Shown here in pieces: positions 16,647-17,054 of a DNA stretch of 64,000 nucleotides. The notes beneath the pieces are model-generated. The model did no database searches, was not told where the DNA came from, and worked only from the letters and a program-made list of their open reading frames with translations. The position numbers were made by a program, and so were the translations under genes. The number at the start of each line of letters is the position of its first letter. Position 1 is the stretch's first letter. The stretch comes from Plantactinospora sp. BC1 (GTDB lineage: Bacteria > Actinomycetota > Actinomycetes > Mycobacteriales > Micromonosporaceae), in contig NZ_CP028158.1 in NCBI RefSeq assembly GCF_003030345.1, positions 3,038,001-3,102,000 on the forward strand. Reading direction: 5' to 3'.

Positions 16647-17054
16647 TCAGCGCGCGGCGGACGCGGCCGGCACCGACGTGCCGTGCCCGATGATCGCGGC
16701 GGTCGCCGCGCCGTGCCTGATGGTCGCGGCTGTCGCGGCGCTGTGTCCGATGATCGCGGCGGCCGCCGCGAAGCCGAACGCGCCGCCGGCCACGGCCGGC
16801 AGGATGGTGACGGTGTCCCCGTCGGAGAGCTTGGCGTCCAGCGCGCCGAGGAACCGGACGTCCTCGTCGTTGACGTAGACGTTGACGAAGCGGTGCAGGG
16901 CGCCCTGCTCGGTGACCAGCCGGCCGCGCAGGCCGGAGTACTTGCCGTCCAGGTCGGACAGGAGGTCGTTGAGCGAGTCGCCGGACCCCTCGACGACCTT
17001 GGCGCCGCCGGTGTAGCTGCGCAGGATGGTGGGAATGCGAACCTCGATGGCCAT
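16647..17054 (-). CDS. cysO: CysO sulfur-carrier protein with tandem-repeat C-terminal tail
   Basis: 135 residues against the usual 90-93. Residues 1-91 are a normal ubiquitin-like ThiS/MoaD fold ([17 protein letters not shown] at the start, [14 protein letters not shown] ending at Gly90-Gly91). The active GG is not C-terminal: 44 more residues follow in frame, AFGF and then three degenerate 10-residue Ala/Ile/His/Gly repeats. CysO accepts sulfur on the terminal glycine, so the tail must be removed first. The upstream gene encodes the JAMM protease Mec, the natural candidate (inference; comparable tail removal is known for QbsE/QbsD). AAGGAG about 10 nt upstream fixes the ATG at 17054. Confidence 0.9.
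16684..16773. repeat. Three 30-bp tandem repeats inside cysO
   Basis: Units 16684-16713, 16714-16743 and 16744-16773 each begin TGYCYGATGRTCGCGGC and differ at a few bases. In the cysO frame each codes for 10 residues of the type AAxAAxIxHG. The 30-bp period keeps the frame, so copy number can change without breaking the gene. Confidence 0.85.

What the first reader, a model, noticed from the sequence alone, without database searches (positions are those of the whole stretch)
16647..17054. CysO sulfur carrier with a tandem-repeat tail after its GG
The sequence shows a normal CysO ending LPAVAGG at residue 91, then 44 extra in-frame residues of which about 30 are three 10-residue repeats (30-bp DNA units). 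Sulfur carriers need a free C-terminal glycine, so the protein as encoded is inactive. The adjacent JAMM protease Mec has a complete active site. QbsE/QbsD shows that a JAMM protease can remove residues after GG. This suggests CysO is made as a pro-protein and that Mec both matures it and releases cysteine.
Basis: partly seen in the sequence, partly recalled or inferred. Interest (0 to 1): 0.75.

Follow-up and report, generated by a model that had tools for sequence, protein, structure and literature searches.

The report
Sulfur carrier made with removable tail
A soil-type bacterium encodes its cysteine-making sulfur carrier with 44 extra amino acids after the glycine pair that must be free for it to work; the tail is real, is conserved in related bacteria and is most likely cut off by the protease encoded next door, a longer version of a trick already known from a few bacteria.

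Summary
CysO (17054-16647, minus strand) reads LPAVAGG to residue 91, then 44 in-frame residues with three 30-bp repeats. It is no sequencing error: all 7 genus genomes searched carry a tail, and 64 of 79 family CysO loci read have 12 or more residues after GG. The conserved part is not the repeats but the first ten residues ([10 protein letters not shown]): 32 synonymous and 0 non-synonymous changes over 16 pairs, tighter than CysO itself. The repeats are young in-frame copies of tail residues 5-14. Short caps are common: 80 of 128 class loci are capped, 48 end at GG. In ten genomes with capped CysO, the other sulfur carriers end exactly at GG, 27 of 27. Mec keeps its JAMM motif; MoeZR is present. 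So CysO is very probably a pro-protein and Mec its likeliest maturase; cleavage was not tested. Capped carriers needing a JAMM protease are published for Streptomyces (PMC6006322). New here: the long conserved core, repeat growth and breadth.

The parts
16782..17054 (-). CysO sulfur-carrier domain, residues 1-91, ending LPAVAGG
   Evidence: PF02597 to residue 91; solved CysO structures
16650..16781 (-). 44-residue C-terminal tail (residues 92-135); stop codon 16647-16649
16752..16781 (-). conserved tail core [10 protein letters not shown] (residues 92-101)
   Evidence: 32 synonymous, 0 non-synonymous changes in 16 pairs; motif in 63 of 79 family loci, 0 of 128 class loci outside the family
16680..16769 (-). 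three ten-residue (30-bp) repeats, residues 96-125
17123..17611 (-). mec, JAMM metalloprotease; EACG and HSHTATEAYPSRTD
   Evidence: (PF14464)
15671..16636 (-). cysM, cysteine synthase
18799..19533 (-). DUF2017 gene (longest frame; true start probably later)
   Evidence: PF09438, residues 76-237
19311..19610 (-). clpS
   Evidence: PF02617; ThiS/MoaD-JAB-cysteine synthase-ClpS operon type of Iyer 2006

Best explanation
CysO of this bacterium and of much of its family is translated as a pro-protein: a normal sulfur-carrier domain ending GG, plus a C-terminal propeptide. Mec, the JAMM metalloprotease encoded next to it, cuts after GG and so frees the glycine that MoeZR adenylates and turns into a thiocarboxylate. 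After CysM has made CysO-cysteine, Mec cuts the same kind of Gly-X peptide bond again and releases cysteine. The first ten tail residues are kept by selection, most likely because the protease or the handling of the precursor needs them; the decamer repeats are tolerated, fast-changing filler that grew by in-frame duplication. Shown here: the tail, its conservation, its restriction to CysO among the carriers of ten genomes, and intact partner genes. Inferred: the cleavage, Mec as the enzyme, and the role of the core.
For: Tail conserved with 0 non-synonymous against 32 synonymous changes in codons 1-10. CysO domain itself under purifying selection, ratio 0.165, so the protein works. 27 of 27 other ThiS-family proteins in ten genomes end exactly at GG, while the 10 CysO, chosen as capped, have 2-67 residues more. 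JAMM motif intact upstream in 181 of 183 loci over 2 kb. CysO and Mec co-occur in the class: 142 and 141 of 168 genomes, 140 with both. MoeZR in the genome. 12 of 80 named loci encode GG-Cys, which is the CysO-cysteine that Mec is reported to hydrolyse. Natural CysO-CysM fusion with a JAMM gene beside it. In Streptomyces, loss of JAMM gene ptmS1 stops a pathway that uses capped carriers.
Against: No cleavage data for this family. In Streptomyces the capped ptmS2 could be deleted without effect, put down to redundancy by the authors. 48 of 128 class loci and 6 of 79 family loci end at GG, so a tail is not needed for the pathway. The core is more constrained than a throw-away propeptide should be. 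4 of 13 class paralogues also carry C or CA, so caps are not wholly confined to CysO. In two genomes with capped CysO (G317, G410) Mec lies about 5.4 kb away on the other strand.
Confidence: 0.75

Rival explanations
1. CysO is a pro-protein, but another protease (for example a C-terminal processing protease or a Clp-type enzyme) trims the tail back to GG, and Mec only releases cysteine.
For: The protease that cuts the MoaX carrier fusion after its GG in mycobacteria was not identified (PMC4326299, passages). A clpS gene sits in the same cluster.
Against: The other carriers in the same genomes have no tails; the carrier that has them is the one encoded with a JAMM gene. Loss of a JAMM gene, not of a general protease, is the published case.
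Confidence: 0.12
2. The tail stays on and CysO has another use, for instance as a protein partner, so the free GG is not needed.
For: The core is under stronger selection than the domain.
Against: GG is invariant and its partners cysM, mec and moeZR are all kept. Sulfur carriers of this kind are described as working through a free terminal glycine.
Confidence: 0.05
3. The tail is neutral filler from loss of the stop codon, kept only because its new stop lies at the cysM start and couples translation.
For: The stop overlaps the cysM start by 4 bases in 32 of 64 family loci with tails of 12 or more residues. The repeats are recent duplications. Codons 11-20 are weakly constrained, ratios 0.39 and 0.55.
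Against: No non-synonymous change in codons 1-10 with 32 synonymous ones. The 4-base overlap is as common with short or no tails, 8 of 15. A neutral tail would still have to be removed for activity.
Confidence: 0.04

Closest known systems
PtmS2 and PtmS3 with JAMM protease PtmS1, Streptomyces platensis (PMC6006322; section 7 read)
   Same: Carrier capped after GG, JAMM gene clustered with it, MoeZ-type activator elsewhere in the genome; the JAMM and activator genes are needed in vivo.
   Different: Caps are MV and C; here 44 residues with a conserved core and repeats. There the carriers were tested for thioplatensimycin, not cysteine.
CysO-CysM-Mec cysteine pathway of Mycobacterium tuberculosis (PMC3227635, passages)
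   Same: Same three genes and the same LPAVAGG ending of the domain; Mec is reported to cut CysO-cysteine.
   Different: The solved mycobacterial chain 3dwg_C ends at GG: no tail to remove.
QbsE/QbsD of thioquinolobactin synthesis (named in PMC6006322; details recalled)
   Same: JAMM protease exposes the GG of a capped sulfur carrier.
   Different: Short cap (two residues, recalled), proteobacterial siderophore pathway.
MoaD-MoaE fusions: MoaX (PMC4326299, passages) and the Deinococcus fusion cut by DRJAMM (PMC8832034, passages)
   Same: An internal GG has to be freed by cutting after the second Gly; DRJAMM is a JAMM protease.
   Different: The part removed is a whole enzyme subunit, not a propeptide; the protease for MoaX was unidentified in that paper.

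Membership tests
CysO sulfur carrier | ThiS/MoaD beta-grasp domain ending in GG | tested here: met
   PF02597 to residue 91; Foldseek best hits 4n6e and 3dwg CysO; GG invariant in 53 aligned sequences
CysO sulfur carrier | encoded with cysM and mec, activator MoeZR in the genome | tested here: met
CysO sulfur carrier | GG is the C-terminus as encoded, as in the solved M. tuberculosis chain | tested here: not met
   44 further residues; but 239 of the 287 non-duplicate loci set aside, 73 of 79 family and 80 of 128 class loci share this departure, so it does not define CysO in this class
CysO sulfur carrier | thiocarboxylate formed and used by CysM | not testable with these tools
   needs mass spectrometry and enzyme assay
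Mec-type JAMM protease | E ... HxH x7 S xx D zinc-site motif in a Prok-JAB domain | tested here: met
   EACG and HSHTATEAYPSRTD; PF14464 E 1.5e-31
JAMM-processed capped sulfur carriers (PtmS2/PtmS1, QbsE/QbsD kind) | residues after GG and a JAMM gene beside the carrier gene | tested here: met
   44 residues here; 12-67 in 64 of 79 family loci; this is what makes it a variant
JAMM-processed capped sulfur carriers (PtmS2/PtmS1, QbsE/QbsD kind) | the JAMM protease removes the cap | not testable with these tools

The most novel reading that the evidence does not exclude
The propeptide is not waste: its ten-residue core is under tighter selection than CysO itself because the tail while attached, or the peptide set free by Mec, has a job of its own in Micromonosporaceae, such as gating when CysO becomes active or acting as a released alanine-rich hydrophobic peptide. 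One Mec cut would then make a working sulfur carrier and a second product.
Probability: 0.15. Interest if true: 0.8.

Novelty: new variant of a known kind. Interest (0 to 1): 0.55.

Why it matters
It suggests that in many Actinomycetes (80 of the 128 class loci read) the cysteine carrier CysO is made in a blocked form, and that Mec then has two tasks, maturation and cysteine release, by the same kind of cut. It would help explain why a JAMM protease travels with this carrier, gives a ready substrate to assay, and warns annotators that the encoded protein is not the mature one. The ten-residue core, more conserved than the carrier itself and not seen outside one family in this sample, is an open question that can be tested directly.

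Tried and rejected
Tail as frameshift or assembly error: rejected; in frame and conserved in 7 of 7 genus genomes and widely in the family.

Tail DNA as an RNA element or antisense gene: fold z-score -1.02, high synonymous change; I take the reverse-strand open frames over it as the usual by-product of GC-rich coding.

Testing 'CysO without Mec should end at GG': not possible, because CysO and Mec nearly always come together; the other carriers served as control instead.

Mec columns that differ between lineages with and without the tail core: found, but they follow phylogeny, so not used as evidence.

AlphaFold of CysO with tail: domain confident, residues 90-98 and most of the rest of the tail below pLDDT 50, short helix at 97-101; it says nothing firm on tail function.

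Strict cleavage-site preference: first residue after GG over 216 capped of 287 loci is A 136, S 36, M 20, C 14, G 4, R 4, T 2, but the pool holds related and some duplicate genomes (for example L072 and L111), and R, Q and H occur in other classes. A tendency only.

Number of origins: at least 24 changes among 'ends at GG', '1-2 residues' and '3 or more' on a FastTree of 181 loci built from CysO domain plus Mec; a quick tree, direction of change unknown.

Literature: Sasaki 2014 on Amycolatopsis CysO is not held; I recall, without having seen it here, that it may discuss CysO processing. HcyS/HcyD of Wolinella, also recalled as a one-residue cap case, was not found.

Full report
Observation. 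The frame at window 17054-16647 (-) is a CysO of 135 residues: domain to LPAVAGG at residue 91, then 44 residues. Residues 96-125 are three ten-residue repeats, seen as a 30-bp tandem array at 16680-16770, score 133. cysM starts 10 bases after the stop; mec lies upstream at 17611-17123. The domain matches ThiS (PF02597) to residue 91, and no Pfam family matched the tail alone. The nearest solved structures are CysO of Amycolatopsis orientalis and of Mycobacterium tuberculosis, whose chains end at GG.

Relatives. The 7 genomes of the genus that were searched all have a tail of 23-44 residues beginning [10 protein letters not shown]. In the family a match was found in 297 of 300 genomes. I read 79 CysO loci there, not a random draw: the 30 best matches, 29 from a set of 30 handles chosen mostly as one per genus among the weaker matches, and 20 that I picked. 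Of these 6 end at GG and 73 are capped, 64 by 12 or more residues; 63 of 79 begin A[FL][GA][FLI]. The window's own species was not identified.

Wider view. Of 80 named loci (the best 80 of 483 relatives in a capped scan), 17 end at GG and 63 are capped. Twelve of the 80, titled Blastococcus, Modestobacter or Geodermatophilus, encode a single Cys after GG; others of those genera end at GG (L130, L131, L148, L170). In the class 142 of 168 genomes have a match; I read one locus in 128 of the 140 outside the family: 48 end at GG and 80 are capped, 15 by one residue, 39 by two, 13 by 3-11 and 13 by 12 or more. Two of these loci (L251, L298) look like paralogues. None of the 128 has the Micromonosporaceae core. 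Some tails carry a second [14 protein letters not shown] end or further GG repeats (L112, L176, L178, L189, L237). In a phylum sample 69 of 119 genomes matched; of 29 loci returned I could read 26: 9 end at GG and 17 are capped (three of the 26 repeat genomes of the class sample).

Selection. Over 16 disjoint pairs of family loci with tails of 23 or more residues, tail codons 1-10 show 32 synonymous and 0 non-synonymous changes; the CysO domain of the same pairs has ratio 0.165, tail codons 11-20 ratio 0.39. At the domain's ratio about 16 non-synonymous changes would be expected. Over 15 pairs with tails of 12-22 residues the ratios are 0.19 (core), 0.26 (domain) and 0.55 (codons 11-20). Codons 11-20 were compared without gaps, so repeat differences may inflate their figure. 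The first ten tail residues are therefore translated and held at protein level. The repeats copy tail residues 5-14; in the Micromonospora-like loci successive units are often identical at 28-30 of 30 bases, up to five copies in L017. In the window the units are older, 23 and 26 of 30.

Specificity. In ten genomes chosen for capped CysO I read all 37 ThiS-family matches: the 10 CysO have 2-67 residues after GG, and the 27 others (by their endings ThiS, MoaD and CysO-like paralogues) end exactly at GG. Of 13 class paralogues ending IPAVAGG, 9 end at GG and 4 have C or CA, which recalls PtmS3 in the literature.

Partners. Mec carries EACG and HSHTATEAYPSRTD; a motif E-x-C-G ... H-S/T-H-x7-S/T-xx-D is found upstream of CysO in 181 of 183 loci longer than 2 kb, missed in L159 and L197. 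In the class sample 141 of 168 genomes have Mec against 142 with CysO, 140 with both; G341 and G428 have weak CysO-like hits and no Mec hit, and G417 has a Mec hit at a contig end and no CysO hit. In G317 and G410 Mec is about 5.4 kb away on the other strand. In the family 295 of 300 genomes have Mec. G162 and G067 have a CysO-family hit but no Mec hit; that of G067 is a paralogue ending SVAGG, that of G162 (a fragmented genome, 92% complete) was not read. The window's genome encodes an E1 with a rhodanese domain, MoeZR type.

Mechanism. Carriers of this kind are described as working through a free C-terminal glycine (PMC3227635 and PMC4326299, passages), so the encoded CysO should have to be cut. 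Mec is reported to hydrolyse CysO-cysteine; by established chemistry that bond ends as an ordinary Gly-Cys peptide bond, like Gly-Ala here, and the GG-Cys loci encode such a substrate outright. A natural CysO-CysM fusion (L404, 404 aa, with a JAMM gene next to it) poses the same need. In Streptomyces platensis loss of the JAMM gene ptmS1 or of the activator ptmS4 stops thioplatensimycin formation, and the authors infer that capped carriers are used; loss of ptmS2 alone had no effect, which they put down to redundancy (section 7 of PMC6006322). Iyer et al. 2006 suggested that JAB domains might free carriers from fusions (PMC1779556, passages). I put the pro-protein reading at about 0.87 in all (0.75 with Mec, 0.12 with another protease).

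Novelty. The principle is in print. I found no description of the long Micromonosporaceae tail, its conserved core or its repeats in the listings of searches, of an open-access library that lacks most subscription papers. I rate it a new variant of a known kind. The unexplained part is the core: stronger constraint than on the carrier itself is odd for a throw-away propeptide.

Noticed in passing
   Followed up: partly
L116, L117, L127, L129, L133, L135, L136, L138, L139, L140, L144, L146: CysO encoded with a single Cys after GG, so the fresh translation product already has the form of the CysO-cysteine intermediate.
   Followed up: partly
L112, L176, L178, L189, L237: Tails that repeat the end of the domain (a second ...PAVAGG) or other GG-ending units; L112, L178, L189 and L237 end again in GG, which might restore a usable end without processing.
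   Followed up: no
L387: CysO tail with an unrelated repeat (SGGLTPGPPAARG-like units): tandem growth of this tail seems to have happened more than once.
   Followed up: no
window 17827-18687 (+): A gene on the opposite strand, which looks like an aldo/keto reductase from its sequence (recalled, family search failed), lies between the DUF2017/clpS genes and mec-cysO-cysM.
   Followed up: no
window 53583-53747: Strong tandem array with nested periods (25, 51, 72 bp; 97% match at period 72, score 284); nature unknown.
   Followed up: no
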